Of a DNA stretch of 64,000 bases, positions 33,456 through 46,607 are shown piece after piece. The stretch is from Terrabacter sp. Root181 (lineage in GTDB: Bacteria > Actinomycetota > Actinomycetes > Actinomycetales > Dermatophilaceae): NCBI RefSeq assembly GCF_001428505.1, contig NZ_LMHU01000009.1, positions 268,298 through 332,297 of the forward strand, given 5' to 3'. Position 1 is the first letter of the stretch; each line of letters begins with the position of its first letter. The notes beneath the pieces are model-generated. The model saw nothing but the letters and a program-made list of their open reading frames with translations. It searched no databases and was not told where the DNA came from. Made by a program: the position numbers and the translations under genes.

Positions 33456-35887
33456 ACTGCACGCAGCCGGGCTGCACCGGAACGATCGTCGACGGCTACT
33501 GCGACGTGTGCGGCATGGCCGCCGGGTCGAGCCCGGTCCCCGTCACGAGCGCCTCCGTCGGCGCGGCGTCCACGCCCGTCGCGGCCCCGGCCCGAGCCGC
33601 GGCGCCGGCCGTCGGTCCGTCGATCCCCGAGGGGGGCGCGTGCCAGCAGCCCGGCTGCAGCGGGACGATCGACGCGGGCTACTGCAACGTGTGCGGCACC
33701 CCGGCCGACCAGCTCGGCGTCGCCGGGTACGCCGCGCCCTCCGACCCACCCGCCACAGCCGGTGCCACCGCCGCGACCGCGGCCACCGGGGGCGTCGGCC
33801 CCGAGATCTCCACGCGGTCGGCCGCCTCGAGCAACCTCGCATCGGCAGCCCTGGGCTCCAAGCGGGCCCGCGAGTCCGGGTCGATCGCGACACGACGCAC
33901 CGGGGGCTCGCAGCGACTGCGCTCGGCCCGCCTCGGTGGCGGCATCACCTCGGTGCGGCCGGCTCCAGAGATCGACGCCGAGAAGGCCCTGCTCACCAAC
34001 CCGTCGGTGCCCGAGAACAAGCGCTTCTGCCCGAAGTGCGGCGAGCCCGTCGGCCGCGGTCGAGACGGCAAGCCGGGCCGCACCACCGGCTTCTGCGCCA
34101 ACTGCCGCCACCCCTTCTCCTTCGACCCCAAGCTCAAGGCGGGCGACCTCGTCGCCGGGCAGTACGAGGTCGCCGGCTGCCTCGCCCACGGTGGCCTCGG
34201 CTGGATCTACCTCGCGCGCGACAAGAACGTGTCCGACCGGTGGGTCGTGCTCAAGGGCCTGCTCAACTCCGCCGACCCCGACGCCCTCGCGGCGGCGATC
34301 GCCGAGCAGCGCTTCCTCGCGCAGGTGTCGCACCCGAGCATCGTCGAGATCTACAACTTCGTGACGCACGACGACGCCGGCTACATCGTCATGGAGTACG
34401 TCGGCGGCACGTCGCTCAAGTCGATCCTCAAGCAGCGCCTCCAGGCCGCCGGGAGGTACGATCCGCTGCCCGTCGACCAGGCCCTCGCCTACATCCTCGA
34501 GATCCTGCCGTCGTTCCAGTACCTCCACGACCTCGGGCTCGTCTACTGCGACTTCAAGCCCGACAACATCATCCAGGTCGGCGACGAGGTCAAGCTCATC
34601 GACCTCGGCGGCGTGCGCCGCGCAGACGACGACGACTCGGCGATCTTCGGCACCGTGGGCTACCAGGCCCCGGAGGTCGCCGAGCTCGGCGTCTCCGCGG
34701 CCTCCGACATCTACACGATCGGCCGCACGCTCGTCGTCCTGACGATGGAGTTCCGCGGCTACCAGACGACCTACCTCAACACGCTGCCCGCGCAGGACAC
34801 CGTCCCGGTCTTCCAGCGCTACGACTCCTTCTACCGGCTCGTCGCCAAGGCGTGTGCGCCCAACCGCGACGACCGCTTCGTCTCGGCCGACGAGCTGCGC
34901 TCGCAGATGGTCGGCGTGCTGCGTGAGGTCGTCGCCCTCGACCGGGGGTCGGGCGCTGCGGCGACGACGGTCAGCTCACTCCTCTTCGACGTGCCGACCC
35001 CGGGCGTCGAGCCCGACGACTGGCGCAACCTGCCGGCGCTGCGACGCGACCCGCACGACCCCCAGACGGGCTGGCTGACCACGGTGTCCGGCTCGCCGGA
35101 GGAACGCCTCGCGACGCTCAAGCGCGCGGCCGTGCGCACGACGGAGGTGCTCCTCGAGCAGGCACGCACCGCACTCGACGCCGGCAGGCCCGACGTCGCC
35201 GAGACCACCGCGGGCGAGCTGCTGAGCGCCGACCCGTGGGAGTGGCGGGCCGTCTGGATCCAGGGTCTCGCGGCACTCGAGCGCGGCGACTCACGCGCCG
35301 CCCAGGCCGCCTTCAACGCCGTCTACGGTCAGGTGCCCGGCGAGCTGGCGCCCAAGCTGGCGCTCGCCCAGGCCTCGGAGCAGGCCGGTGACGCGGCCGT
35401 CGCGGAGAACCTCTACGTGGCCTGCGCGCGGACCGACGCGACCTACGTCCCGATGGCCGCGTTCGGTCTCGCCCGCATCCGGGCCGCACGGTCCGACGTC
35501 GACGGTGCCGTGGCGGCATACCGCCTCGTCCCGGTCCAGTCGAGCGCCTACCGCACTGCACGCGCGGGTCTCGCCGAGCTGCTCGCCAAGGCCAACCGGG
35601 GACTGCCCGACCTCGCCGAGGCCCTGCGCACCCTCGACGACACGTCGCTGTCGGCGCGGCGCCGTGCCGAGCTCACGACGCTGATCTACCGTGAGGCGCT
35701 CGTGACGGTGGAGAAGACCGGCAACAAGGCCGACGTCCGCCTCGGCGAGCACAAGGGCACCCCCAACGGCCTGCGTCTCGGGCTCGAGGAGGCCCTGCGC
35801 GAGCTGGCCAAGCGCACCCCCGACCTGTCCGAGCGCGTTCCCCTCGTGGACGAGGCCAACGCCATCCGACCCTGGAGCCTCTGGTGA
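33452..35887 (+). CDS. pknG: PknG-like serine/threonine protein kinase with extra zinc ribbons
   Basis: 811 residues. Two short zinc ribbons open the protein (Cys 3, 8, 17, 20 and 64, 69, 78, 81; GTIVDGYCDVCG and GTIDAGYCNVCG). After a linker with RLRSARLGGGIT comes the PknG rubredoxin-like domain (FCPKCGEPVGR and FCANCRHPFSF, Cys 193, 196, 215, 218). The kinase domain (about 238-500) has a Gly loop (AHGGLGWIYLARD), Lys 268, catalytic YCDFKPDNII and DLGG in place of DFG. A C-terminal TPR-like helical domain of about 260 residues follows, as in PknG. Mycobacterial PknG phosphorylates the FHA protein GarA to control 2-oxoglutarate metabolism. The first two ribbons are an addition relative to mycobacterial PknG as I know it. 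Confidence 0.93.
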   Translation: MNCTQPGCTGTIVDGYCDVCGMAAGSSPVPVTSASVGAASTPVAAPARAAAPAVGPSIPEGGACQQPGCSGTIDAGYCNVCGTPADQLGVAGYAAPSDPPATAGATAATAATGGVGPEISTRSAASSNLASAALGSKRARESGSIATRRTGGSQRLRSARLGGGITSVRPAPEIDAEKALLTNPSVPENKRFCPKCGEPVGRGRDGKPGRTTGFCANCRHPFSFDPKLKAGDLVAGQYEVAGCLAHGGLGWIYLARDKNVSDRWVVLKGLLNSADPDALAAAIAEQRFLAQVSHPSIVEIYNFVTHDDAGYIVMEYVGGTSLKSILKQRLQAAGRYDPLPVDQALAYILEILPSFQYLHDLGLVYCDFKPDNIIQVGDEVKLIDLGGVRRADDDDSAIFGTVGYQAPEVAELGVSAASDIYTIGRTLVVLTMEFRGYQTTYLNTLPAQDTVPVFQRYDSFYRLVAKACAPNRDDRFVSADELRSQMVGVLREVVALDRGSGAAATTVSSLLFDVPTPGVEPDDWRNLPALRRDPHDPQTGWLTTVSGSPEERLATLKRAAVRTTEVLLEQARTALDAGRPDVAETTAGELLSADPWEWRAVWIQGLAALERGDSRAAQAAFNAVYGQVPGELAPKLALAQASEQAGDAAVAENLYVACARTDATYVPMAAFGLARIRAARSDVDGAVAAYRLVPVQSSAYRTARAGLAELLAKANRGLPDLAEALRTLDDTSLSARRRAELTTLIYREALVTVEKTGNKADVRLGEHKGTPNGLRLGLEEALRELAKRTPDLSERVPLVDEANAIRPWSLW

Positions 35888-37188
35888 CCGACATCCCGAC
35901 CGCGGGAGCGCCACAACCCGCTCCCGTGCCTGCGCCCGGGTCCCTGCCGAGCGTCACGACCGCGCCCGCGCCACCCGCCTCGCGGGACTGCCCCGCCTGC
36001 GGCACGGCCAACCCGGCCGACTCGACCTTCTGCGAGGCGTGCGGCGCCGACCTCGTGGTCGCGGCCCGCGCCTCCGACGGGGCACAGCCGCCGGCCGACG
36101 TCTCGGACGGCACGGTGCTCGCCTCGGCGACGCCGCAGACCGCGCCCGCCGGTGAGGAGTCCCCCCTCGACGTCGGCTGGACCGGGGCCGTGCCCTCCTC
36201 GGCCACCGCCCCCGCGACCGACGACCTCACCTGCCACGCCTGCGGCCAGGGCCGTATCGTCGACGGCTACTGCGACCACTGCGGCACCCCGCCGCCCAAC
36301 CCCCGCGACCACCTCGTCGACTCGCCGACGGCCTGGGTCGGGGGCGTCTGCGACATCGGCAGGCGCCACGCCCGCAACGAGGACGCCATGTCGCTCAGCG
36401 CCACCGACCCACCGGGGTCGCGGGCCGTCCTCGTCGTCTGCGACGGCGTCTCGATGGCCACCGACTCGCACATCGCCTCGCTCGCCGCCGCGAAAGCTGC
36501 CCGGGCCGTGCTCGACCAGCCGTTCCCCAAGGGCGTCGGCACCCCGGACTCGTGGGCGTCCGGTGCCGCGCGGGCGCTGACGAGCGCCGTCACCCGCGCC
36601 AACGAGGCCGTCGCCGCCTCGGTCGTCGAGGACGTCCCCAACCCCCCGTCGTGCACCTTCGCGGCCGCGGTCGTCGAGGACGACGTCGTCGTGGCCGGCA
36701 ACGTCGGCGACAGCCGGGTCTACTGGCTGCCGGACGCCGCCGACGAGCCGGCGCGTCAGCTCGGCCGCGACGACTCCTTCGCGCAGGAGCAGATGACCGC
36801 GGGTGTACCTAGGCTCGAGGCCGAAACCGGACCGCACGCGCACTCGATCACGCGCTGGCTCGGCAAGGACGCACCCGAGGACCTCACGCCGCACCTGACG
36901 ACGCTGACGCCGACACCGGGTTGGCTCATGGTCTGCTCCGACGGGCTGTGGAACTACTGCTCCGAGGCCGAGTCGCTGCGCACCCTGCTGCACGACGCGG
37001 CGGCACGGCTCGACGACGCCACGCCCACCACCCTGGCGCAGGCGCTCGTCGACTTCGCCAACGAGCAGGGTGGACGCGACAACATCACGGTTGCCCTCGC
37101 CAGACTGGCTGGGCGAGGATCGAGCACGACGACGACCGAGGCGACCGCAGCGGCGGCGCCGGTGGAAGGGGACCCGACCGATGGCTGA
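35884..37188 (+). CDS. PP2C-family protein phosphatase with zinc ribbons
   Basis: 434 residues. Two N-terminal zinc ribbons (Cys 36, 39, 50, 53 and 117, 120, 130, 133; the second reads GRIVDGYCDHCG, nearly the kinase ribbon) precede a PP2C domain from about residue 152. Metal-binding and core motifs are present: RRHARNEDAM, VVCDGVS, AGNVGDSRVYWL, MVCSDGLWNYC and GGRDNITVALA. The GTG start overlaps the kinase stop (GTGA), which couples kinase and phosphatase synthesis. It probably reverses phosphorylation by the adjacent kinase, with the shared ribbons as a possible docking element. The C-terminus is Thr/Ala-rich. Confidence 0.9.
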   Translation: MTDIPTAGAPQPAPVPAPGSLPSVTTAPAPPASRDCPACGTANPADSTFCEACGADLVVAARASDGAQPPADVSDGTVLASATPQTAPAGEESPLDVGWTGAVPSSATAPATDDLTCHACGQGRIVDGYCDHCGTPPPNPRDHLVDSPTAWVGGVCDIGRRHARNEDAMSLSATDPPGSRAVLVVCDGVSMATDSHIASLAAAKAARAVLDQPFPKGVGTPDSWASGAARALTSAVTRANEAVAASVVEDVPNPPSCTFAAAVVEDDVVVAGNVGDSRVYWLPDAADEPARQLGRDDSFAQEQMTAGVPRLEAETGPHAHSITRWLGKDAPEDLTPHLTTLTPTPGWLMVCSDGLWNYCSEAESLRTLLHDAAARLDDATPTTLAQALVDFANEQGGRDNITVALARLAGRGSSTTTTEATAAAAPVEGDPTDG

Positions 37189-38479
37189 CTTCACGGCAGA
37201 GGTGTTCCAGAACGAGTTCCTGCCCGACGGGGGCACCGACGTGCACGCGATCGTGCGTGTGACCTCGACGGGCGCGTCCACGGGCACGTCGTCCGCGGCC
37301 TCGGCGGGGCTGGCCGATCCCGGTTCGGCCGCAGAGGTCATCCTCATCGACACGTCCGGCTCGATGGGTCGGCGCGGGGTCGCGGCGGCCGGCGAGGCCG
37401 CCAAGGCCGCGCTCGCCGAGATCGTCGACGGCACGCTCTTCTCCATCGTGTCGGGCAACGGCACGGCCCAGATCGTCTACCCGTACAGCCACCAGGGCGC
37501 CCTCGTCCCGATGTCGGCGCACACCCGCGGCGAGGCCAGCCGCGCCATCGACGGCCTCCGCGCCAACGGCGGCACGGCGATGGGCACCTGGCTCTCCCTC
37601 GCCCGCCAGATCTTCGAGACCGTGCCGCACGTGACGAAGCGCCACGCGATCCTGCTCACCGACGGCGTCAACGAGGGCGAGACGTCCCAGTCGCTGCAGG
37701 CCGCGGTCCAGAGCTGCGTCGGTGCCTTCCAGTGCGACTGCCGCGGCGTCGGCGACCAGTGGCGCGTCGACGAGGTGCGCGGCATCGCCTCGGCGCTGCT
37801 CGGCACCGTCGACCTCATCCCGGCGCCGGAGGAGATGGCCGCCGAGTTCGAGGCGATGATGCGCACGTCGATGTCACGCGGCGTCGCCAACTCGGAGCTG
37901 CGCGTGTGGGTGCCGCAGGGCGCGGAGCTGCTCTTCGTCAAGCAGGTGTCACCGACGCTCGAGGACCTCACGTCACGTCGCACCGTCGTCAACCCGCTCA
38001 CCGGCGCCTACCCGACCGGCGCGTGGTCCGACGAGAGCCGCGACTACCACGTGGCCGTCCGCCTCCCCGCCCGCACGCTGGGCCAGGAGCAGCTGGCGGC
38101 CCGCGTGCAGTTCTCGCTCGGTGGTGACCCCGTCGCGCAGGCGCTCGTCAAGGCCAAGTGGAGCAACGACGACTCGCTGACGACGCGCATCGACCCCGCG
38201 GTCGCCGCCTACACCGGGCAGGCCGAGCTCGCCACCGTCATCCAGGAGGGCCTCGCGGCCAAGGCCGCCGGCCAGGACGACGTCGCGACGTCGAAGCTCG
38301 GCCGGGCCGTCCAGCTCGCCGACCAGACGGGCAACGACGAGATGACCTCCCGCCTCAAGAAGGTCGTCGAGATCGACGACGCCGACACCGGGACCGTCCG
38401 CCTCAAGAAGGGGGCCTCGAAGATCGACGAGATGTCGCTCGACACGGCCTCGACGAAGACGAGCAGGGTGCGCCGGTGA
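37181..38479 (+). CDS. VWA-domain protein
   Basis: 432 residues. A von Willebrand A domain starts at about residue 52 with an intact MIDAS (LIDTSGSM, Asp57-x-Ser-x-Ser), then GLRANGGTAMGTWL and AILLTDGVNEGE for the other metal contacts. The C-terminal half has a beta-rich part (YHVAVRLPARTLGQEQLAAR) and a helical tail (ATSKLGRAVQLADQTGNDEM). No signal peptide, so it is cytoplasmic and resembles the VWA partners of TerD/TelA-type gene clusters. It overlaps the phosphatase gene by 8 nt. VWA proteins often pair with AAA+ ATPases such as the one in this operon. Confidence 0.88.
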   Translation: MADFTAEVFQNEFLPDGGTDVHAIVRVTSTGASTGTSSAASAGLADPGSAAEVILIDTSGSMGRRGVAAAGEAAKAALAEIVDGTLFSIVSGNGTAQIVYPYSHQGALVPMSAHTRGEASRAIDGLRANGGTAMGTWLSLARQIFETVPHVTKRHAILLTDGVNEGETSQSLQAAVQSCVGAFQCDCRGVGDQWRVDEVRGIASALLGTVDLIPAPEEMAAEFEAMMRTSMSRGVANSELRVWVPQGAELLFVKQVSPTLEDLTSRRTVVNPLTGAYPTGAWSDESRDYHVAVRLPARTLGQEQLAARVQFSLGGDPVAQALVKAKWSNDDSLTTRIDPAVAAYTGQAELATVIQEGLAAKAAGQDDVATSKLGRAVQLADQTGNDEMTSRLKKVVEIDDADTGTVRLKKGASKIDEMSLDTASTKTSRVRR

Positions 38480-39363
38480 GCGCTGTCTGCCCCAACGGGC
38501 ACACGTCCGAGGCCGAGGACTACTGCGACACGTGCGGCTCGCCCATCGACGCGAGCGCCCAGCCGGCCTCGGGTGGCGGCGTCGCGGCGAGCGCGGGCGA
38601 CCCCGCCTCCGCCCCTGCAGCCGGTGCTCCGACGTCAGGCTCCTCCCTCGACCTCGACTCGCCGGCCGCGGCCGCCACGGCTCCTGAGACGGCGGACCCG
38701 GTCGCTCCGGCCGCCCTCGTGTGCCCCCACTGCCAGACCGAGAACCCCGACGGCGCGCTCTTCTGCGAGGCCTGCGGCTACGACTTCACGACCGGCGCGA
38801 TGCCACGCGACCCGGCGGCCGGACCCGGCGACCTCGCCGACACGGAGCCCGAGGGCGAAGCCGTCGGTCACGCGTCAGCCGGCCCCGCGGGTGCCGCGGG
38901 TGCCGCAGCCGCTGCGTCCGACGGTTCGACCGGCGAGTCCACCACGTCCTTCGAGTGGCTGGCCGAGGTCTGGGTCGACCCGGACTGGTACCAGACCCAG
39001 GAGGCCGAGGACCCCTGCCCGTCACCGGGGCTGCCGACGATCATGCCGCTGCGCCACCGCAGCGTCCTGCTCGGCCGCGTGTCGACGAGCAAGAACACCC
39101 ACCCCGAGATCGACCTCTCGTCCGACCCCGGAGTCAGCCGCCGCCATGCGCAGCTGACCACCGACGGGAGCCGCTGGTTCGTCGAGGACCTCGGCAGCTC
39201 CAACGGCACCTTCGTCGGGCCCGCGTCGGGGCCGCTCCCCCAGCGCGCGATCGCCGTCGGCCCCAAGACCGAGCTGGGCGACGACGACCGCCTCTACGTC
39301 GGCGCCTGGACGCGTGTCGTCGTGCGTCGAGCCACCCCCGACGAGGTCGAGGCCTACGCCTGA
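38476..39363 (+). CDS. FHA-domain protein with zinc ribbons, GarA-like
   Basis: 295 residues. Two zinc ribbons (Cys 5, 17, 20 region and Cys 83, 86, 97, 100), an Ala/Gly-rich linker, then a C-terminal FHA domain: LLGRVSTSKNTHPEIDLSSD, GVSRRHAQL and LGSSNGTFVG carry the phosphothreonine-binding Arg/Ser/Asn. At residues 154-159 lies ESTTSF, closely matching the ETTSVF phosphosite segment of mycobacterial GarA as I remember it. GarA phosphorylated by PknG folds onto its own FHA domain and releases its metabolic enzyme partners. The GTG start overlaps the VWA stop. It is the last gene of the cluster and the likely output protein. Confidence 0.88.
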   Translation: MSAVCPNGHTSEAEDYCDTCGSPIDASAQPASGGGVAASAGDPASAPAAGAPTSGSSLDLDSPAAAATAPETADPVAPAALVCPHCQTENPDGALFCEACGYDFTTGAMPRDPAAGPGDLADTEPEGEAVGHASAGPAGAAGAAAAASDGSTGESTTSFEWLAEVWVDPDWYQTQEAEDPCPSPGLPTIMPLRHRSVLLGRVSTSKNTHPEIDLSSDPGVSRRHAQLTTDGSRWFVEDLGSSNGTFVGPASGPLPQRAIAVGPKTELGDDDRLYVGAWTRVVVRRATPDEVEAYA

Positions 39364-39521
39364 CGGGACTGGGCCACCGTCCGTGGGACCGACAGGGCCA
39401 CTCCACAGGGGCGGTGACGGCATACGGCATCGGTGCCGGGCGGCGGAGGGCTGCGGACGCTACTTGAACGTCACATGAACTCTGGCGACTTTTCACCCCG
39501 CGGCGCCTAGGGTGGTGCGGT

Positions 39522-40085
39522 GTGAGCGACCGGCCCCTCCACTCCGCCGTCGACCTCCCGCAGATCATCGTCGTCACCGGCGTCATGGCCGCGGGCAAGT
39601 CGACCGTCTCCCAGCTCCTCGCGGAGCGCTTCTCGCGCGCGGTGCACCTGCGCGGCGACGAGTTCCGCCGTGTCGTCGTGCGCGGCCGCGTCGACATGTC
39701 GCCGCACGGTGACCCCGAGGCGGAGCGGCAGCTCGCCCTGCGGCACGCCATCGCGGCCCACTCCGCCAACGAGTACGCCGCGGCGGGCTTCACCGTGGTC
39801 GTCCAGGACCTCTTCGTCGGGACGACCCTTCGGCCCTTCCTCGACCAGCTGACCGCGCGACCGCTCAGCCTCGTGATGCTCGCGCCCGACGTGGGCACCG
39901 TCATGCAGCGCGAGTCCGAGCGGGTCAAGGTCGGCTACGGCGACCTCTGGTCGATCCGCGACTTCGACCACAAGGTGCGCACGGAGACGCCGCACATCGG
40001 CCTGTGGCTCGACAGCTCGCAGCAGACGCCGGACGAGACGGTCGAGGAGATCCTCGCCCGCCTCGCCGAGGCAAGGGTGGCCTAG
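39522..40085 (+). CDS. P-loop kinase-like ATP-binding protein
   Basis: 187 residues with an N-terminal Walker A VVTGVMAAGKSTVSQLL (about residues 17-33) and LRGDEFRRVVVRG, the layout of small-molecule kinases such as the chloramphenicol phosphotransferase and shikimate/gluconate-kinase groups. There is no second domain. The GTG at 39522 follows TAGGGT (39508-39513) by 8 nt, probably leaderless. The SoxR-like gene starts directly at its stop codon, so the two are likely co-transcribed. The substrate is not recognisable. Confidence 0.78.
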   Translation: MSDRPLHSAVDLPQIIVVTGVMAAGKSTVSQLLAERFSRAVHLRGDEFRRVVVRGRVDMSPHGDPEAERQLALRHAIAAHSANEYAAAGFTVVVQDLFVGTTLRPFLDQLTARPLSLVMLAPDVGTVMQRESERVKVGYGDLWSIRDFDHKVRTETPHIGLWLDSSQQTPDETVEEILARLAEARVA

Positions 40086-40517
40086 ATGTCGGGCCTGACG
40101 ATCGGACAGGTCGCCGAGCGCACCGGCGCGGCCACCTCCGCCCTGCGCTACTGGGAGGACCTCGGGCTCATCAGCTCGGTCCGCACGACCGGCAACCAGC
40201 GCCGCTACGAGCGGGCGACGATCCGCCGGGTGTCGTTCATCCGGGCGGCCCAGCGGGTGGGCCTGTCGCTCGACGAGATCGGGGCCGCACTCGCAACGCT
40301 CCCGGACGCGCGCACCCCCACCGCCACGGACTGGGCCCGGCTCTCGCGCGCGTGGCGCGGCCGGCTCGACGAGCAGATCCGCCGCATCGAGAAGCTGCGC
40401 GACCAGCTCGACTCCTGCATCGGCTGCGGGTGCCTCAGCCTGCGCACGTGCGCGCTCAACAACCCGTCCGACGTGCTGGCCGAGCACGGGCCCGGGGCCG
40501 TCCTCCTCGAGCCCTGA
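40086..40517 (+). CDS. soxR: SoxR-like redox-sensing MerR regulator
   Basis: 143 residues: MerR helix-turn-helix (LTIGQVAERTGAATSALRYW), dimerisation helix (LDEQIRRIEKLRDQLDSC) and the SoxR [2Fe-2S] ligand motif CIGCGCLSLRTC (four cysteines). SoxR proteins respond to redox-cycling compounds; in actinobacteria they usually control quinone-modifying enzymes or pumps. The ATG directly follows the stop of the kinase-like gene. No SoxR-type 19-bp-spacer promoter was noticed close by. The length fits the family. Confidence 0.92.
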   Translation: MSGLTIGQVAERTGAATSALRYWEDLGLISSVRTTGNQRRYERATIRRVSFIRAAQRVGLSLDEIGAALATLPDARTPTATDWARLSRAWRGRLDEQIRRIEKLRDQLDSCIGCGCLSLRTCALNNPSDVLAEHGPGAVLLEP

Positions 40518-40626: not shown

Positions 40627-40658
40627 GGGTTAGCCCGTTGTTACTGGGAGTTGGGATC
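40627..40658 (+). promoter_or_regulatory. SARP-type operator and promoter of the amidase gene
   Basis: Heptamers GTTAGCC (40627-40633) and GTTACTG (40638-40644) are separated by 4 nt, an 11-bp repeat period. GATCGT (40653-40658), 8 nt after the second heptamer, is the weakest of the four -10 candidates. SARP regulators characteristically bind such repeats. The start codon is 48 nt further on. An ACCGGAC-C-GTCCGGT palindrome (40668-40682) lies in the leader. Confidence 0.65.
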
Positions 40659-40706
40659 GTCGGCTCGTGACCGGACCGTCCGGTCCGAACCCGAACGGAG
40701 ACCTGC

Positions 40707-41381
40707 ATGCGCGCGCTGCCGCTCGGCGGGTCCGAGGCCGCCGCGGACGACTCTGCCGGCGCCGGAACCGCCACCTCATCACCCGAGCCGGGAGCCCTCG
40801 CGAGCCAGGGAGAGCCGCTGCCCCTGACCTGGCTGGCCGACGCGCTGCGGGACGCCGGGCTCGTCGTCCACGAGACCTCTGGATGGACGACGCGCCTGGG
40901 GCCCGGCGTGTTCGAGCCCGGCGGGGTGCTGCTCCACCACACCGCCGTCCTCGCGACGCCGTCCGACCCCCACCCGTCGCTCGACCTGGTGGTCGCCGGG
41001 GACACCGATCGCCCCGGCCCCCTCTGCCACGTCCTCGTGGACCGCAACGGGGAGTGCTGGGTCGTCGCCGCGGGGCGCGCGAGCCATGCCGGCCGGGCCG
41101 ACACGAGTGGCCCGATGCCCGAGGGGGACGGCGATGCCGTCTACGTCGGCATCGAGGTCGAGTACGCCGCGACGACCCAGGACCCCACGCAGTACGCGAC
41201 GAGCGTGCAGAAGTCGACCGCGATCGTGGCCGCCGCGACGATCGTCGCTCGCCTCGGTCGCGACCAGCGCCACGTGCGCGCGCACCGGGAGACGAGCCCG
41301 GCGGCCGCCATCGACCCCTACAACTGGGACATGGTCTCGATCCGGGACTCGGTGCGCCAGGCCCTCGAGCGGACCGGCTGA
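40707..41381 (+). CDS. N-acetylmuramoyl-L-alanine amidase (Amidase_2/PGRP fold)
   Basis: 224 residues. The zinc-amidase core has LLHHTAVLATP (first ligand), HVLVDRNGECWVVAAGRASH-type strand (CHVLVDRNGECWVVAAGRAS), VGIEVEYAATTQDPTQYAT and VRAHRETSPAAAIDP (third ligand). These cleave the bond between muramic acid and the peptide stem. I see no signal peptide: the first 35 residues are Ala/Ser/Pro-rich and hydrophilic. It is convergent with an NlpC/P60-like gene behind a 20-bp hairpin, and it shares an operator type with the other lytic genes. Confidence 0.85.
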   Translation: MRALPLGGSEAAADDSAGAGTATSSPEPGALASQGEPLPLTWLADALRDAGLVVHETSGWTTRLGPGVFEPGGVLLHHTAVLATPSDPHPSLDLVVAGDTDRPGPLCHVLVDRNGECWVVAAGRASHAGRADTSGPMPEGDGDAVYVGIEVEYAATTQDPTQYATSVQKSTAIVAAATIVARLGRDQRHVRAHRETSPAAAIDPYNWDMVSIRDSVRQALERTG

Positions 41382-41418
41382 GAGCCCGGGCCGGCGCATT
41401 CGCTCGACCGCCGGCCGC

Positions 41419-41468
41419 CCCACGACACGGCGCCTGCCCCCACGAGGAGGCAGGCGCCGTGTCGTGGG
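41419..41468. terminator. 20-bp perfect hairpin, bidirectional terminator
   Basis: 41419-41438 pairs with 41449-41468 without mismatch (outer CCCACGACAC / GTGTCGTGGG, inner GCGCCTGCC / GGCAGGCGC) around a 10-nt loop. It lies between two convergent cell-wall hydrolase genes. Confidence 0.9.
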
Positions 41469-41481
41469 CCGAGAACCGGAG

Positions 41482-42012
41482 TCAGTCGCGGATGTTGTTC
41501 GCGCGACGGGCGAGGTAGCCGGAGTAGCTGCTGAGGTTGGCGATCCGGTGGTTCATGTCGTCGGTGGGGTTGGACTCCTCGTAGAGCCAGAACTGCGTGT
41601 GGTCGGCGTTGGCCCACTTCTGGAAGAGGACGGTGTGGTTGCCGGGGTCGACGAGGAAGTCGCCGGCCTTGAGGTTGGCGCGCGAGATGCCGAAGCTGTA
41701 GGTGGAGGTGGCCAGTGCCGACGTGTTCGGCGCGCTGAGGCCGGTGGGTCCGAGCTTGAGGGCCATCGACACGAAGCCCGAGCAGTCGCGTCGCCACGAG
41801 TAGACGCCGTCGGGCCCCGTCGCGGTGCCGCTCTGGCTGTACTGGATGTTGCGGTCCATCCAGTTCTGCGCCCTGTCGATGACGTCGGCCCTGCTGATGG
41901 GGTCGTTGGGGGCCGCACTGGCGGGGGCGGCGGGTGCGGCGGTGACCGCAACGGCGATCATCGTGGTGGCGAGGGCCGAACGGATCATGGTGCGGCGGGA
42001 CATCGTCGACAT
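41482..42012 (-). CDS. Secreted NlpC/P60-like cysteine peptidase or amidase
   Basis: 176 residues. A signal peptide with two arginines (SRRTMIRSALATTMIAVAVT, cleavage near PASA) leaves a mature domain of about 140 residues. The catalytic cysteine is in WRRDCSGFVSMALKLG, and the GDFLVDPGNHTVLFQKW strand supplies the histidine, as in NlpC/P60 peptidoglycan peptidases. The catalytic order fits, but the family variant is not certain. The ATG at 42012 follows AAGGAG. A SARP-type operator lies 94 nt or more upstream. The RR could allow Tat export, although the motif is incomplete. Confidence 0.8.
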   Translation of the reverse strand: MSTMSRRTMIRSALATTMIAVAVTAAPAAPASAAPNDPISRADVIDRAQNWMDRNIQYSQSGTATGPDGVYSWRRDCSGFVSMALKLGPTGLSAPNTSALATSTYSFGISRANLKAGDFLVDPGNHTVLFQKWANADHTQFWLYEESNPTDDMNHRIANLSSYSGYLARRANNIRD

Positions 42013-42105
42013 GGTTTCAACTCCTTATCGGGGGCCGTCGCGAGCCTTCTCACGATTCGGCGCCTGGTGTTGTGGTGGTTTCACCTGGTGTTTCTGGCGA
42101 TGCCG

Positions 42106-42137
42106 AACCTGCCATCACGGACCAACAATTCGCTAAC
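42106..42137 (-). promoter_or_regulatory. SARP-type operator and promoter of the NlpC/P60-like gene
   Basis: Reading the minus strand: GTTAGCG (42137-42131), AATT, GTTGGTC (42126-42120), 8 nt, then CAGGTT (42111-42106) as -10. Spacer and distance match the other three sites. The 285-bp region before the gene also holds one CGGCATACG motif (42240-42248) and no gene I can support. Confidence 0.7.
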
Positions 42138-42297
42138 ACGTGGAAATGCCGCGGAGAATGGTTCGCTGTCGGCAGGTCGGGGCCTTACGGAAATGGGCGT
42201 ACGCCACCGGGTGGACTCGTGGTGCACGAGTCCACCCAGCGGCATACGCCGTCGAACGCGTCCCCCCGCGGAACCCCTGGGCCCGCGGGAGCACGGT

Positions 42298-42843
42298 TCA
42301 GCAGTTGGTGCGCGTGAAGTAGTCGGTCGTGTAGTAGGACACCCACGTGCTGGTGCCGAACTTGATGCTCACCGGGCTGCCGTCGGCGCGCTGCTCGTAG
42401 TGCAGGTGGGACGTGGCCTGGCCACCGGACTTGCCGACGGTGCCGATCGTCGTGGTGTCCGCGACGTTCTGTCCGACGCTGACGTTGATCGAGTTGAGGT
42501 GGGCGTAGAGCGTGCTCCAGCCGTTCCCGTGGTCGACGATGATGCGGTTGCCGTAGCCGCTGCCCACGTTGCCGGCGGCGGAGACCCGGCCGCCGGCGCT
42601 CGCCTTGACGGCCTTGCCGAGGTCGAAGTCGCCCGACCCCTGGTTGAAGTCGATGGCGCGGTCCGGGTTGTGACCCTGCCAGGTCTGGCCCCGCCACTCC
42701 TGCTGGCACGTGAAGGGCACCTTGAGCAGCGGGCGGGTGCCGGCCGCGTCGGCGTTGACGGCGTTCACGGCCGTGCCCGCACCCACGGCGGCGAGCGTGG
42801 CGACGGCGGCGACGGTGCGCTTCATCCGCATGGAGATGTTCAT
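42298..42843 (-). CDS. Secreted M23 (LytM-type) metallopeptidase
   Basis: 181 residues. Signal peptide MKRTVAAVATLAAVGAGTA to about NADA. The mature domain has the LytM zinc site: first His/Asp in NPDRAIDFNQGSGD, HGNGWSTLYAHLNSI and the HxH motif SHLHYEQRADG. Such enzymes cut peptide cross-links of the cell wall. The mature protein has two cysteines, one in FTCQQEWRG and one as the final residue, which could form a disulfide. The ATG at 42843 follows GAAGGAG; upstream in-frame codons run through the promoter and are not used. A SARP-type operator lies about 150 nt upstream. Confidence 0.88.
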   Translation of the reverse strand: MNISMRMKRTVAAVATLAAVGAGTAVNAVNADAAGTRPLLKVPFTCQQEWRGQTWQGHNPDRAIDFNQGSGDFDLGKAVKASAGGRVSAAGNVGSGYGNRIIVDHGNGWSTLYAHLNSINVSVGQNVADTTTIGTVGKSGGQATSHLHYEQRADGSPVSIKFGTSTWVSYYTTDYFTRTNC

Positions 42844-42991
42844 GAGACTGACTCCTTCGTTTCCTGACGGTTCCCGGTGGCTGGTTCCGCGATCTCTCGT
42901 CCGTCGGACGGGAAGTGCGAAAGGCGTGATGCGACCGCGTCGCCTCACCGCCGGACGCGTTTCGGGGATGACCGCGCCCTGGCTTGTGTCG

Positions 42992-43023
42992 AATGTCCAC
43001 CGCGCCGCTAACAATTCGTTAAC
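42992..43023 (-). promoter_or_regulatory. SARP-type operator and promoter of the M23 peptidase gene
   Basis: Minus strand: GTTAACG (43023-43017), AATT, GTTAGCG (43012-43006), 8 nt, then GACATT (42997-42992). A further GTTAGGG lies just upstream. The 326-bp region 42844-43169 between this gene and the divergent SARP gene holds no gene; it contains this site, a long leader and, at 43158-43163, TTCAAT, 6 nt before the SARP GTG. Confidence 0.75.
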
Positions 43024-43169
43024 CCCTAACGGCGCGCGCCATTCTCCGGTGAAAGGGCGCCCTTCCCGGGGGCCGCCGACGCCCTGCCACGTCGCGGACG
43101 ACGTCCCCATCCGGCGCAGGGCCGAGGTCGTGCCGCGCGGTCACGTCCGGGGTCGGGTTCAATGTCCCT

Positions 43170-46100
43170 GTGCAGTTCCGGGTGCTGGGGCCGGTGGAGG
43201 CTCTCGACGACGACGGCGCCCCCATTCCGCTGGGCGGTGGCCGCGAGCGTCTCGTCCTCGCCCTCCTCCTCGTCGGCGCCGATCGACTCGTGCCCACGGA
43301 GCAGCTCATCGACTCGCTGTGGAACGAGCCACCACCGACGGCGCGGCAGCAGCTGCAGAACCTCATCGCGCGTCTGCGGCGGCGCCTGGTCGCCCACGAC
43401 CCGGGCCTCGTCACGACCCGGCCGTTCGGCTACGAGCTGCGCATGACCCGGCACTCTCTCGACCTCGCCGAGTTCCGCAGCCTCTGCACCCAGGCTCGGG
43501 CCCAGCGCGCCGCCGGTGACGACGACACCGCCCGCACGGCCTCCCGTGCCGTCGACCTCTGGCGGGGAGCCCCGCTCAGCGACGCGGTCCCGGCCAGCTC
43601 CGACGCCGGCACCGAGGCCCTGATCCAGAGCCTCGCGGAGGAACGGATCGCCGCCGTGGAGCTGCTGCTCGAGTCGCTCGCCACCGGCGGACAGCACGAG
43701 GCGGTCCTGAGGGCGGCCTCCGAGCACCTGACGGCCGACCCGTGGAACGAGCGGCTGCATGAGCACCGCATCCGCGCGCTCGCGGCGACCGGGCGCCGGC
43801 AGGAGGCCAGCGACGCCTACCGCCAGGTCCGCCGCCAGTTCCTCGACGAGCTCGGGGTCGAACCCGGCCGGGGGCTGCGCGAGCTCAACACGCGGATCCT
43901 CGACGGTTCGGCGCTGGCGTCCGCCCGGCCGCAGCCACGCATCGTGCCCCGCGAGCTGCCCGCGATGACGTGGACCCTCGTGGGACGCGACGCGATCCTG
44001 GGCTCGGTCATGTCCCAGCTCACGCGGCGTCGCGCGGAGATCCCGTCATCGGGGCCCCCGTCCATCGTCGTCCTCGCCGGGGTCGGTGGGGTGGGCAAGA
44101 CGGCGCTCGCCGTCGCGGCCGCCCACCAGCTCGCCGATGCGTTCCCCGACGGCACCCTGCATGCGGCGCTGGGCGCAGGACCGTCCGGGGCCGCGGACGG
44201 CCACGAGGTCGTCGGCCGGTTCCTGCGCGCCCTCGGCGTCGAGCACGCGGCCATCCCGGCCGACCCCGACGAGCGGGTCGCGCTCTACCGCAGCACGGTC
44301 GACCGCAAGCGCGTCCTCGTCGTGCTCGACGACACCTCGGGCGAGGCCCAGGTGCGCCGGCTGCTCCCGACCTCGCCCGGGTCGGCCGCCCTCGTGACCT
44401 CCCGGAGCAAGCTCGCCGGGCTGCCCGGGGTGCACCGGCACACCATCCCCCCACTGCTGGCGGAGGACGCGACCTCGATGCTCGCGGGGCTGTCCGGGAC
44501 GCCGGAGGGCGACGACCGCGGGGTCCTGGAGCAGATCGGCACGCTCTGTGGGCACCTGCCCCTGGCACTGTGCGTCGCAGCCGCCAAGCTCGCGACGGAC
44601 GAGCACCTCCGGCTGGAGGATCTCCGGGACCGCCTCAGCGACGAGCACGCCCGCCTCGACGAGCTGTCGGTCGGCGACATCGACGTCAGGGCCAGCATCA
44701 CGACCTCCGTCACCGACCTGTCACCCGCCGCCGGCATCCTCTTCCGCCGCCTCGCTGTCGCTCCTTCGGGCGACTGGCCCGGGTGGGTCGCATCGCTCCT
44801 GCTCGATCCGCCAGCACAGCCGTCCGGTGCGCAGCGCGAGGGCGCGCAGGGCGAGGGCGCGCAGGGCGAGGGCGCCCAATGCGAGGGCGCGCAGGGCGAC
44901 GGCCCCCGGGGACGCGGGCTCCGCGTGAGCAGAGCAACCCGCGCCCTCGACGAGCTCATCGACTGCCACCTCGTCGAGCCGACCGGGCGCGACACCGCTG
45001 GGCAGCCCCGGTTTCGCGTGCACAGCCTCGTCGCGGAGCTCGCAGGCGAGGCGCTGGGCGAAGCCGAGCCGTCGCCGAACGTCGACGAGCTCGCTGCCGT
45101 CCTGGCGTGGCAGTGGCTCGCCCTCGCGGACGTGGCCGACGCCCGGCTCGACCCCGGGGACGCCCGGGTGGACGACGGGACGACGGGTCCGTCCGCAGAC
45201 GCCGCGGCCCGCGCCGCCTCGGAGTCCCCGGCCGACTGGTTCGAGTCCGAGCGGCTCAACCTCGTCGGCGCCGTCCACGCGGCAGTGGCCCGCGACGACC
45301 GCGAGCTCGCCGCACGCATCGCCCTGTCCATCCGTACCTTCCTCACGATCCGGGCCTACGACGACGAGCGCGAACGCGTCCTGCGCATCGCCCTCGACGA
45401 CTACCCCGACGAGGCCGACCAGCGTCTGGCGGCACAGCTCCTCGCTGCCCTGTTCGGCGTCCTGGCCCAGGAGCACCGTCACGACGAGCTGACCGACGTG
45501 GCGACCCGCTTCCTCGCCGCGGCCCGACGTGTCGGCGACGGGCCACTCGAGCAGCGGGCGCTCTCACAGCTCGGATGGGCAGCCATGACGCAGCGGGACT
45601 TCGCCGCCTCGCTCCGCTGGTACGAGCAGGCGGCCGAGCTGGCGACCACCCGTCACGACCTGACGGCCCGCACCACGGCGGACGCCCATCGGGGAGTGCT
45701 CCTGCGCAACATGGGACGGCCCACCGAAGGCGACCCGCTCCTCGCCGCGATGGTCACCGAGTCGCGTCGGCACGGCTCCCGCCGTTCGACGTGCATCTGG
45801 CTCGTCACCCGCGCCGAGGGGCTCATCGACCTCGACCTCTTCGACGAGGCCGAGTCCCTGCTCGACGAGGCCCTCGAGCTCGCCCACGAGGTGCGCGACG
45901 ACCTCGGCGAGGCGCACTGCCACCTCGCACGCGCCCGGGCTCACCTCGGGCGTGGCGCGCTCACCGGCGCCATGGCCGACTACGACGCCGCGCGACCACG
46001 ACTCGACGCGCAGTCCCGGTCGGGTGAGGACCTCGACCTCCTGCGGCTGCGCATCGACCTCGACACGGCGGCCCAACGCTGGGGCGACGCCCACCCGCGC

Positions 46101-46364
46101 GTGACGCGGCTCGTCGCCGCTCGGCGGGCGTCCGGCGACGAGCTGGAGCTGGCGCGTGACCTGGCCCGCCAGGCCACGTGCGAGGAGCACCTGCCCTACG
46201 CCGCCCCCACCACCGCCTCGACCGACGACTCCGGCGAGCCACCGCCCGGTGCCGTCCGCGCGGCCGCGTCCGAGTACCGGGCGATCCTCGGGCGGCTCGA
46301 CCTGCCTCGGGACGCCCTGCGCCTCCCGGCACACCTTCGGCAGCGACCGGCTAACGGTTGTTAG
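43170..46364 (+). CDS. AfsR/SARP-family transcriptional activator with NB-ARC and TPR domains
   Basis: 1064 residues. N-terminal OmpR-type winged helix (FRVLGPVEALDDDGAPIPLG, RQQLQNLIARLRRRL), a bacterial transcriptional activation domain (DLAEFRSLCTQARAQRAAGD to DELGVEPGRGLRELNTRIL), an NB-ARC ATPase (VVLAGVGGVGKTALAVAA and VLVVLDDTSGEAQ; about 290-540) and a C-terminal TPR-like region (about 700-1000). This is the AfsR layout; such proteins activate promoters carrying 11-bp-spaced heptamer repeats. The GTG at 43170 is 6 nt after TTCAAT, so leaderless. A 15-bp tandem repeat inserts EGAQG units after the ATPase. Four matching operators surround the gene. Confidence 0.92.
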   Translation: MQFRVLGPVEALDDDGAPIPLGGGRERLVLALLLVGADRLVPTEQLIDSLWNEPPPTARQQLQNLIARLRRRLVAHDPGLVTTRPFGYELRMTRHSLDLAEFRSLCTQARAQRAAGDDDTARTASRAVDLWRGAPLSDAVPASSDAGTEALIQSLAEERIAAVELLLESLATGGQHEAVLRAASEHLTADPWNERLHEHRIRALAATGRRQEASDAYRQVRRQFLDELGVEPGRGLRELNTRILDGSALASARPQPRIVPRELPAMTWTLVGRDAILGSVMSQLTRRRAEIPSSGPPSIVVLAGVGGVGKTALAVAAAHQLADAFPDGTLHAALGAGPSGAADGHEVVGRFLRALGVEHAAIPADPDERVALYRSTVDRKRVLVVLDDTSGEAQVRRLLPTSPGSAALVTSRSKLAGLPGVHRHTIPPLLAEDATSMLAGLSGTPEGDDRGVLEQIGTLCGHLPLALCVAAAKLATDEHLRLEDLRDRLSDEHARLDELSVGDIDVRASITTSVTDLSPAAGILFRRLAVAPSGDWPGWVASLLLDPPAQPSGAQREGAQGEGAQGEGAQCEGAQGDGPRGRGLRVSRATRALDELIDCHLVEPTGRDTAGQPRFRVHSLVAELAGEALGEAEPSPNVDELAAVLAWQWLALADVADARLDPGDARVDDGTTGPSADAAARAASESPADWFESERLNLVGAVHAAVARDDRELAARIALSIRTFLTIRAYDDERERVLRIALDDYPDEADQRLAAQLLAALFGVLAQEHRHDELTDVATRFLAAARRVGDGPLEQRALSQLGWAAMTQRDFAASLRWYEQAAELATTRHDLTARTTADAHRGVLLRNMGRPTEGDPLLAAMVTESRRHGSRRSTCIWLVTRAEGLIDLDLFDEAESLLDEALELAHEVRDDLGEAHCHLARARAHLGRGALTGAMADYDAARPRLDAQSRSGEDLDLLRLRIDLDTAAQRWGDAHPRVTRLVAARRASGDELELARDLARQATCEEHLPYAAPTTASTDDSGEPPPGAVRAAASEYRAILGRLDLPRDALRLPAHLRQRPANGC
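44826..44900 (+). repeat. 15-bp tandem repeat inside the SARP gene
   Basis: Five copies of a 15-bp unit (GGCGCGCAGGGCGAG with variants) encode G-A-Q-G/R/C-E repeats between the NB-ARC and helical domains. Period and reading frame agree, so copy-number changes would keep the frame. Probably a flexible linker. Confidence 0.85.
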
Positions 46365-46392
46365 CCGTTTGTTGGCGCACCCTCCGTAGGGT
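46360..46392 (+). promoter_or_regulatory. SARP-type operator and promoter of the small secreted peptide gene
   Basis: GTTAGCC (46360-46366), GTTT, GTTGGCG (46371-46377), 9 nt, then TAGGGT (46387-46392). The first heptamer overlaps the SARP stop codon and is also the right arm of a GGCTAAC-GGTT-GTTAGCC palindrome (46349-46366). The peptide start is 59 nt beyond the -10 box. Confidence 0.7.
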
Positions 46393-46451: not shown

Positions 46452-46607
46452 ATGAAGCTTGTCGCTCGTGTCGCCGCCGCCGTCATCGTCACCGGCCTCT
46501 TCGGCATGTCGGGTGCCGCCACCAACGCCCAGGCCGCACCGCCGAGCTGGTGCGCCTACCAGAGCGCGGACGGCTCCTGCCACCCCACTCCGCCGCAGAC
46601 GGCCTGA
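46452..46607 (+). CDS. Small secreted peptide, 51 residues
   Basis: ATG at 46452 with AAGGGGAG upstream, stop TGA at 46605-46607. A signal peptide (KLVARVAAAVIVTGLFGMSG to TNAQA) covers about 28 residues, leaving a mature peptide of about 22-23 residues with two cysteines nine apart (WCAYQSADGSC) and a Pro-rich end (HPTPPQTA). It resembles no family I know. It has its own SARP-type promoter and a 16-bp hairpin behind it. It could be a signal, a cell-wall ligand or an antimicrobial peptide; the sequence does not decide. Gene reality rests on ribosome binding site, signal peptide, promoter and terminator together. Confidence 0.72.
   Translation: MKLVARVAAAVIVTGLFGMSGAATNAQAAPPSWCAYQSADGSCHPTPPQTA

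What the first reader, a model, noticed from the sequence alone, without database searches (positions are those of the whole stretch)
40627..46392. Four SARP-type operators define a cell-wall-lysis regulon around the AfsR-like gene
Aligned toward their genes, four sites read GTTAGCC-CGTT-GTTACTG (40627, amidase), GTTAGCG-AATT-GTTGGTC (42137, NlpC/P60-like), GTTAACG-AATT-GTTAGCG (43023, M23 peptidase) and GTTAGCC-GTTT-GTTGGCG (46360, small peptide). Each has two heptamers with a 4-nt spacer and a -10 candidate 8-9 nt further on, the known SARP binding geometry. All four point at their gene, and the genes encode three different peptidoglycan hydrolases and one secreted peptide. SARPs are best known for antibiotic clusters; one dedicated to a lytic set would be new to me. 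The set may serve killing of other cells, wall turnover or resuscitation.
Basis: partly seen in the sequence, partly recalled or inferred. Interest (0 to 1): 0.86.

Follow-up and report, generated by a model that had tools for sequence, protein, structure and literature searches.

The report
Antibiotic-type regulator controls wall-cutting enzymes
In some soil bacteria related to Terrabacter, a regulator of the type best known for switching on antibiotic genes very probably switches on a small set of genes for enzymes that cut bacterial cell walls, plus a tiny secreted peptide whose job is unknown.

Summary
The four boxes exist (the first starts at 40629). GTTARC-N5-GTTRG occurs three times in the 4.94-Mb genome, all here. 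A pattern of two 11-bp repeats plus a -10 gives 16 matches in nine genomes of the genus. All lie before the same few gene families, 15 of them hydrolase families; none are in the three genomes without the regulator. One match is a fifth box of this genome, on another contig, before a secreted I36-M23 peptidase.

Thirty sites share an unselected -10 (+27 A/T in 30, +31 T in 27): published SARP geometry. Targets: endolysin-type amidase, NlpC/P60-like, M23, CHAP and I36-M23 proteins, and a two-cysteine secreted peptide found in exactly the six regulator-carrying genomes of 186 searched.

Best reading: a large AfsR-like SARP-STAND activator drives an accessory lytic regulon. That this protein binds the boxes is inferred; I had no binding or expression data. 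The purpose (killing, self-lysis, turnover) is open. Known regulator type; target set not found described in nine searches of an open-access library.

The parts
43170..46364 (+). Large SARP (AfsR-like): OmpR-type DNA-binding domain + BTAD + NB-ARC + weak TPR matches, 1064 aa; proposed activator
   Evidence: Pfam; PDB AfsR 5e-77 over residues 2-552; orthologs in 5 other genomes of the genus
40629..40646 (+). Box 1 GTTAGCC-CGTT-GTTACTG
   Evidence: amidase boxes also in G002 (first base changed), G004, G007 and G008
40655..40660 (+). -10 candidate GATCGT, 8 nt after box 1
   Evidence: columns 26-31
40707..41381 (+). Endolysin-type N-acetylmuramoyl-L-alanine amidase (Amidase_2), no signal segment
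   Evidence: (phrog_880 3.6e-32)
42120..42137 (-). Box 2 GTTAGCG-AATT-GTTGGTC
42106..42111 (-). -10 candidate CAGGTT for box 2
41482..42012 (-). NlpC/P60-like protein with signal segment (conserved C77, H126)
   Evidence: (below cut-off)
43006..43023 (-). Box 3 GTTAACG-AATT-GTTAGCG, identical in two relatives, in one of them unlinked to the regulator
42992..42997 (-). -10 candidate GACATT for box 3
42298..42843 (-). Secreted M23 metallopeptidase (start with RBS at 42843 preferred over the longer ORF start)
46360..46377 (+). Box 4 GTTAGCC-GTTT-GTTGGCG, overlapping the regulator's stop codon
46387..46392 (+). -10 candidate TAGGGT for box 4 (9 nt)
46452..46607 (+). 51-aa secreted peptide, mature part with W-C-x(n)-S-x-[DN]-G-x-C, directly downstream of the regulator in all six genomes

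Best explanation
The AfsR-like large SARP at 43170-46364 is the activator of a small dedicated regulon. Its SARP domain binds two 11-bp direct repeats (GTTAGCS-NNTT-GTTAGSG) placed 8-9 nt before a poor -10 and recruits RNA polymerase, as published for AfsR at afsS. The NB-ARC/TPR part holds it off until an unknown signal acts. In the window's genome the regulon has five known members: an endolysin-type amidase, an exported NlpC/P60-like protein, an M23 peptidase, a two-cysteine secreted peptide and, on another contig, an I36-M23 peptidase. Shown here: boxes, -10, targets, conservation and co-occurrence. Inferred: that this SARP is the binder, that it activates, and that the enzymes work. My best guess for the purpose is an accessory, inducible lytic arsenal, either against other bacteria or released by a lysing subset of cells, rather than housekeeping. 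The reasons are that the set was not found in three of nine genomes (one of them 74% complete) and that its enzyme cargo differs between species.
For: Genome-wide uniqueness. Model R1, trained on 19 linked sites, gave 33 matches in nine genomes. The best 25 are all regulon promoters, 9 of them not in the training set and 5 of these unlinked to the regulator, all 5 before M23-type peptidases. Two-repeat plus -10 pattern: 16 of 16 matches are regulon promoters, 0 control matches, 0 in G001, G005 and G006. Leave-one-family-out scan of 12 loci: 28 of 28 held-out sites outrank every non-site (closest margin 1 bit, for the peptide family); two unlisted places that interleave are the G002 amidase box and the G004 NlpC box. 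Repeat period 11 dominates in the loci that hold the boxes: 17 of 28 GTTA/GTTR pairs in five relatives' loci, 4 of 13 in the window. Conserved -10 columns. Four I36-M23 paralogs at 36-44% identity, and the 89% NlpC ortholog and 59% M23 relative in regulator-free G006, have no box: best score anywhere in their loci is 3.2, against 22.2 for the weakest of the 30 listed sites. The regulator's family binds repeats 11 or 22 bp apart with the 3' repeat 8 bp from the -10 (PMC10936776, sections read). Peptide and regulator co-occur 6 of 6, with none elsewhere in 186 genomes.
Against: I had no binding, expression or enzyme data. In G001 and G005 the targets that I searched are missing as well as the regulator (at the thresholds used), so absent boxes there say little; only G006 keeps targets without boxes. 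Of the AfsR DNA-contact residues, R92 matches R68 in the window but is G or T in the five orthologs, and T88 is N in all six. Orthologous promoters are not independent. The G004 NlpC box (18.2 bits) and the window's own I36-M23 box (21.5 bits) score below the weakest of the 30 listed sites (22.2). Model R1 missed both of these and the G008 peptide box, and ranked the G008 CHAP box last (its first look scored only 150 candidates per genome). The NlpC-like and CHAP assignments are under Pfam's cut-offs. The purpose is a guess.
Confidence: 0.82

Rival explanations
1. The boxes are bound by another winged-helix regulator with the same 11-bp repeat geometry (PhoP/OmpR type or the genome's small SARP), and the AfsR-like gene is only a neighbour.
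For: The published text says AfsR and PhoP bind overlapping sequences in Streptomyces (PMC10936776 introduction). The own genome holds another SARP-like protein at C5:416249.
Against: In the genus, strong box matches are found only in genomes with the AfsR-like ortholog. The NlpC ortholog of regulator-free G006 has no box. In all six genomes the regulator lies beside boxes.
Confidence: 0.1
2. The regulon serves the cell's own wall turnover, fragmentation or muropeptide recycling rather than killing.
For: The amidase has no signal segment and a weak AmpD match (6.7e-5). Secreted single-domain hydrolases could trim the own wall.
Against: The amidase matches phage endolysins far better (phrog_880 3.6e-32; 533 phage records). 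The regulator was not found in three of nine genomes of the genus (one is 74% complete), and the M23/CHAP cargo differs between species, which is unusual for housekeeping.
Confidence: 0.35
3. NLR-like self-lysis: the STAND sensor responds to a phage or damage cue and turns on lytic enzymes, killing the cell or releasing the endolysin-type amidase.
For: STAND architecture and an endolysin-type amidase without signal segment.
Against: The regulator has only a weak TPR match in PADLOC (4e-4). The other hydrolases carry signal segments. Nothing else in the regulon pointed to phage.
Confidence: 0.06
4. The repeats are chance or a repeat element.
For: None found.
Against: 0 in shuffles, three matches in the genome, all here, a -10 at fixed distance, sites before unrelated gene families.
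Confidence: 0.01

Closest known systems
AfsR-afsS of Streptomyces coelicolor (large SARP, PDB 8jke/8k60/8hvr)
   Same: Same domain order (aligned at 5e-77 over residues 2-552), 11-bp direct repeats before a poor -10, and a small gene with a box right after the regulator (the afsS position is recalled)
   Different: Fails the AfsR equivalog cut-off (329.5 against 1430 bits). The small gene encodes a secreted two-cysteine peptide, and the other targets are wall hydrolases instead of a link to antibiotic production
Small SARPs of antibiotic clusters (ActII-ORF4, DnrI type)
   Same: Heptameric direct repeats with spacers of 4 nt or more, overlapping the promoter's -35 region (PMC10972967 passages)
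   Different: No biosynthetic cluster noticed here; NB-ARC and TPR-like parts present; targets partly dispersed over the genome
EmbR of Mycobacterium tuberculosis
   Same: A SARP-domain regulator (PDB 2fez, 7.7e-27) tied to cell-wall genes (recalled)
   Different: FHA domain instead of NB-ARC/TPR (PMC10936776); regulator of wall synthesis rather than lysis (recalled)
Competence-linked fratricide and bacteriolysin systems (LytA/CbpD, lysostaphin, zoocin A; recalled)
   Same: Regulated lytic enzymes; the M23 protein matches zoocin A and lysostaphin structures
   Different: Different regulator class; competence and immunity genes were not searched for and none was noticed

Membership tests
[quoted passage not shown]
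   PF00486 1.8e-8 and PF03704 1.3e-29, both above cut-off
SARP family | Direct repeats at 11-bp period, 3' repeat about 8 bp from the -10 | tested here: met
   30 sites; period 11 in 17 of 28 pairs in five loci
SARP family | The protein binds those repeats and activates transcription | not testable with these tools
   needs EMSA or in vitro transcription
Large SARP / STAND (AfsR type) | NB-ARC with Walker A motif | tested here: met
   PF00931 8.9e-8; Walker A GVGGVGKT invariant in 6 orthologs
Large SARP / STAND (AfsR type) | TPR sensor at the C-terminus | tested here: inconclusive
   TPR_2 1e-4 and TPR_12 3e-4, both below Pfam cut-offs
AfsR (equivalog) | NCBIfam NF053617 score above 1430 | tested here: not met
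   329.5 bits
NlpC/P60 | Pfam PF00877 above cut-off | tested here: not met
   19.7 against 23 bits, though C77 and H126 are invariant in 5 sequences; the fold is untested because structure prediction never ran
CHAP (relatives' target) | Pfam PF05257 above cut-off | tested here: not met
   22.8 against 26 bits
Peptidase M23 | PF01551 above cut-off | tested here: met
   86.9 against 28.7 bits
Phage-type endolysin amidase | Amidase_2 domain, similarity to phage endolysins, no signal segment | tested here: met

The most novel reading that the evidence does not exclude
The two-cysteine peptide encoded right after the regulator is a secreted signal sensed, directly or through import, by the STAND/TPR part of the regulator. 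It would make a self-amplifying, density-dependent lytic switch: an AfsR-type quorum system whose output is enzymatic 'antibiotics' that lyse kin or competitors.
Probability: 0.17. Interest if true: 0.86.

Novelty: new variant of a known kind. Interest (0 to 1): 0.66.

Why it matters
SARPs are studied mostly as switches of antibiotic synthesis. Here the same kind of switch seems to control proteins that digest cell walls. This suggests that the regulator class can govern enzymatic weapons or lysis as well as chemical ones, and gives a compact five-target regulon in a soil genus. The peptide that accompanies the regulator one to one is a concrete candidate for the unknown input of AfsR-type STAND regulators, or for an effector in its own right.

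Tried and rejected
Chance repeats: rejected. A very loose pattern (two mismatches) is uninformative: 60 matches against 66 for the control. A wider role of this box in the family: in the 177 genomes of other genera GTTARCN5GTTRG has 62 matches in 47 genomes, against 130 for the reversed-pattern control in 75 genomes (counted). Only G107, of another genus, has four; they lie in two places before the same gene families. Family-level relatives of the regulator (12 loci, 35-46% identity) have no boxes around them apart from one match inside a coding region. The Stackebrandtia relative: no GTTR-N7-GTTR site, and no wall hydrolase recognised by eye next to it. M23 relatives in other genera: 7 matches in 6 genomes, of 396 genomes searched at E 1e-25; best box score 12.7 against at least 22.2 for listed sites. 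Looking for known work: nine paper searches listed nothing that I recognised as a SARP controlling wall hydrolases; I saw listings only, except PMC10936776 (abstract, sections 4, 7, 9) and PMC10972967 (passages). Most subscription journals and all bioRxiv preprints are missing from that library. Anti-phage defence models gave only a weak TPR match for the regulator. In G107 the regulator matches only residues 1-126 and then runs into sulfate-transporter-like genes (names by eye); deletion or misassembly cannot be told apart, so G107 was not counted as a genome with the regulator. AlphaFold models of the NlpC-like and CHAP proteins could not be made because the machine was busy each time.

Full report
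WHAT WAS CLAIMED AND WHAT IS THERE. The four direct repeats are in the sequence: GTTAGCC-CGTT-GTTACTG at 40629 (+), GTTAGCG-AATT-GTTGGTC at 42137 (-), GTTAACG-AATT-GTTAGCG at 43023 (-) and GTTAGCC-GTTT-GTTGGCG at 46360 (+). The first was reported two bases off. GTTARCN5GTTRG matches three of them and nothing else in the 4.94-Mb genome, control 0. With two mismatches allowed on a longer pattern the genome gives 60 matches against 66 for the control, so only near-exact matches mean anything.

THE REGULATOR. The 1064-aa gene at 43170-46364 has the SARP pair of domains (PF00486, PF03704), an NB-ARC domain and TPR matches below cut-off. Its residues 2-552 align with Streptomyces AfsR structures (5e-77). 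It fails the AfsR equivalog cut-off, so it is AfsR-like, not AfsR. In nine genomes of the genus, 8 have some match; true orthologs (53-82% identity over the whole protein) are in five besides the window's genome: G002, G003, G004, G007 and G008. G001 and G006 have only distant relatives; G005 (74% complete) has no match.

PHYLOGENETIC FOOTPRINT. GTTARCN5GTTRG in the nine genomes: 16 matches, all in the six genomes with the ortholog, none in the other three; the reversed-pattern control gives one. Twelve lie at the regulator, four elsewhere. I read the genes after every GTTA-N7-GTTR or GTTR-N7-GTTA site in the regulator loci and at the four unlinked places (25 sites; five more in G107). They give the same few families: Amidase_2, NlpC-like, M23, CHAP (PF05257 22.8 against 26 bits), an I36+M23 fusion, a small peptide and secreted proteins of 147 aa (G003, G107) and 142 aa (G107), plus the truncated regulator gene of G107.

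THE -10. All 30 sites were aligned; they had been chosen by the repeats alone. Counting from the first G as 0, +27 is A or T in 30 of 30 and +31 is T in 27 of 30, in a G+C-rich background. One representative for each of nine gene families shows A/T at +27 in 9 of 9 and T at +31 in 8 of 9. This is a poor -10 (xANNNT) about 8 nt after the second heptamer. The AfsR structure paper states that SARP promoters have repeats 11 or 22 bp apart with the 3' repeat 8 bp from the -10 (PMC10936776, sections 4, 7 and 9 read).

BLIND TESTS. A sequence model from 19 of the 30 sites (18 at regulator loci of the genus, one from G107) was run on the nine genomes. Of 33 rows, the best 25 and the last row are regulon promoters and 7 rows (E 1.04 to 2.38) are background. 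Nine of the best 25 were not in the training set; five of these lie far from the regulator, one before an M23 gene and four before I36-M23 genes (positions compared). Not found: the G008 peptide box, the G004 NlpC box and the window's own I36-M23 box; the G008 CHAP box came last. Each genome's first look scored only 150 of several hundred candidates. A leave-one-family-out weight matrix over 12 loci put 28 of 28 held-out sites above every non-site, by only 1 bit for the weakest peptide site; two interleaving unlisted places are the boxes of the G002 amidase and the G004 NlpC-like gene. The pattern GTTAR-N6-GTTAG-N11-W-N3-T gave 16 matches in nine genomes: five I36-M23, four CHAP, three NlpC-like, three M23 and one 147-aa secreted protein; control 0. 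One of the 16 is in the window's own genome at C1:1064451, before its I36-M23 gene (95% identical ortholog). So the window's genome has five known members, one unlinked.

CONTROLS. G006, without the regulator, keeps an 89% identical NlpC-like gene and a 59% M23 relative. Four I36-M23 paralogs at 36-44% identity lie in G000, G004, G006 and G107. In none of these six loci does any place on either strand score above 3.2 bits, against 22.2 for the weakest of the 30 listed sites. Outside the genus the short pattern gives 62 matches against 130 for the control in 177 genomes. The limit of this test is that G001 and G005 lack the target genes searched as well as the regulator.

THE PROTEINS. With a hydrophobic signal segment by simple hydropathy: NlpC-like (2 sequences; its S-R-R-T start resembles a Tat signal, a recalled motif), M23 (3), CHAP (3), I36-M23 (2), peptide (4), sec147 (1) and sec142 (1). 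The amidase has none in the four sequences examined. It matches the phage endolysin family phrog_880 at 3.6e-32 and 533 phage records, much better than AmpD (6.7e-5). The NlpC-like protein is under Pfam's cut-off; its DCSG cysteine and an NH motif are invariant in five sequences. The M23 protein aligns with solved M23 structures, including DipM, zoocin A and lysostaphin.

THE PEPTIDE. All six orthologs are followed by a 51-53-aa peptide gene with its own box. Shared: signal segment, W-C, then S-x-[DN]-G-x-C. Between the window and G004 the mature part has 4 synonymous changes in 16 sites and 2 non-synonymous in 53, so it seems selected as a protein. A profile search of 186 genomes found it at E 7.4e-22 or better in exactly those six; the next match is 6e-4 and covers positions 4-36, mostly the signal part (85 genomes have some match at 0.1).

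MECHANISM. Shown: boxes, promoters, targets, co-occurrence. From the literature: AfsR's SARP domain dimerises on 11-bp repeats and engages polymerase, while NOD and TPR restrain it and ATP binding relieves this (PMC10936776). Inferred: the same here, with an unknown input. Against a simple transfer: the base-contacting R92 of AfsR corresponds to R68 in the window but to G or T in the orthologs, and T88 to N. A changed contact set would fit a changed box but was not tested.

PURPOSE. The regulator was not found in three of nine genomes (one of them incomplete). The hydrolase cargo at the locus differs between species: M23 beside the regulator in two, CHAP in four. Most of the enzymes carry signal segments and a single catalytic domain, and one is an endolysin type. 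An accessory lytic arsenal (bacteriolysins, or release by lysing cells) fits best; own-wall turnover remains a serious rival. The most novel reading, a peptide-sensing lytic switch, is not excluded and is testable.

NOVELTY. Regulator class and operator geometry are known. A SARP regulon of wall hydrolases was not found in nine searches of the open library, which lacks most subscription journals and all bioRxiv preprints. EmbR is a SARP-domain protein tied to wall synthesis (recalled).

Noticed in passing
window 46348-46367: A terminator-like hairpin (CGGCTAACGG-TTGT-TAGCCG then TTTGTT) overlaps box 4 and the regulator's stop codon (such hits are expected at 0.9 per shuffle). The dyad is not conserved in G004.
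   Followed up: partly
window 43024-43030, - strand: An extra GTTAGGG lies directly before box 3 (GTTAGGG-GTTAACG), a possible third, off-period repeat; not seen in the other two M23 promoters.
   Followed up: partly
L083:10510-12409 (G107, another genus): The regulator homolog matches only residues 1-126 and then continues into what look like sulfate ABC transporter genes; a box precedes it, which hints at autoregulation in that genus. Deletion or misassembly cannot be told apart.
   Followed up: partly
window 35884-40517: The regulon sits beside a cluster with a PP2C-like phosphatase, a VWA-like protein, an FHA/zinc-ribbon protein, a CPT-like kinase and a MerR regulator, seen in whole or part next to the regulon in the four relatives' loci listed (the PP2C and VWA names are by eye). 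Whether its signalling proteins act on the AfsR-like protein is open.
   Followed up: no
L031:3128-5824 (G004): A long ORF of 898 aa lies between the MerR gene and the amidase in G004; no counterpart is listed at that place in the window.
   Followed up: no
L035:11876-12319 and L082:12329-12757: Two further proteins with signal segments share the box: 147 aa in G003 and G107 (no Pfam match), 142 aa in G107 (not tested against Pfam).
   Followed up: partly
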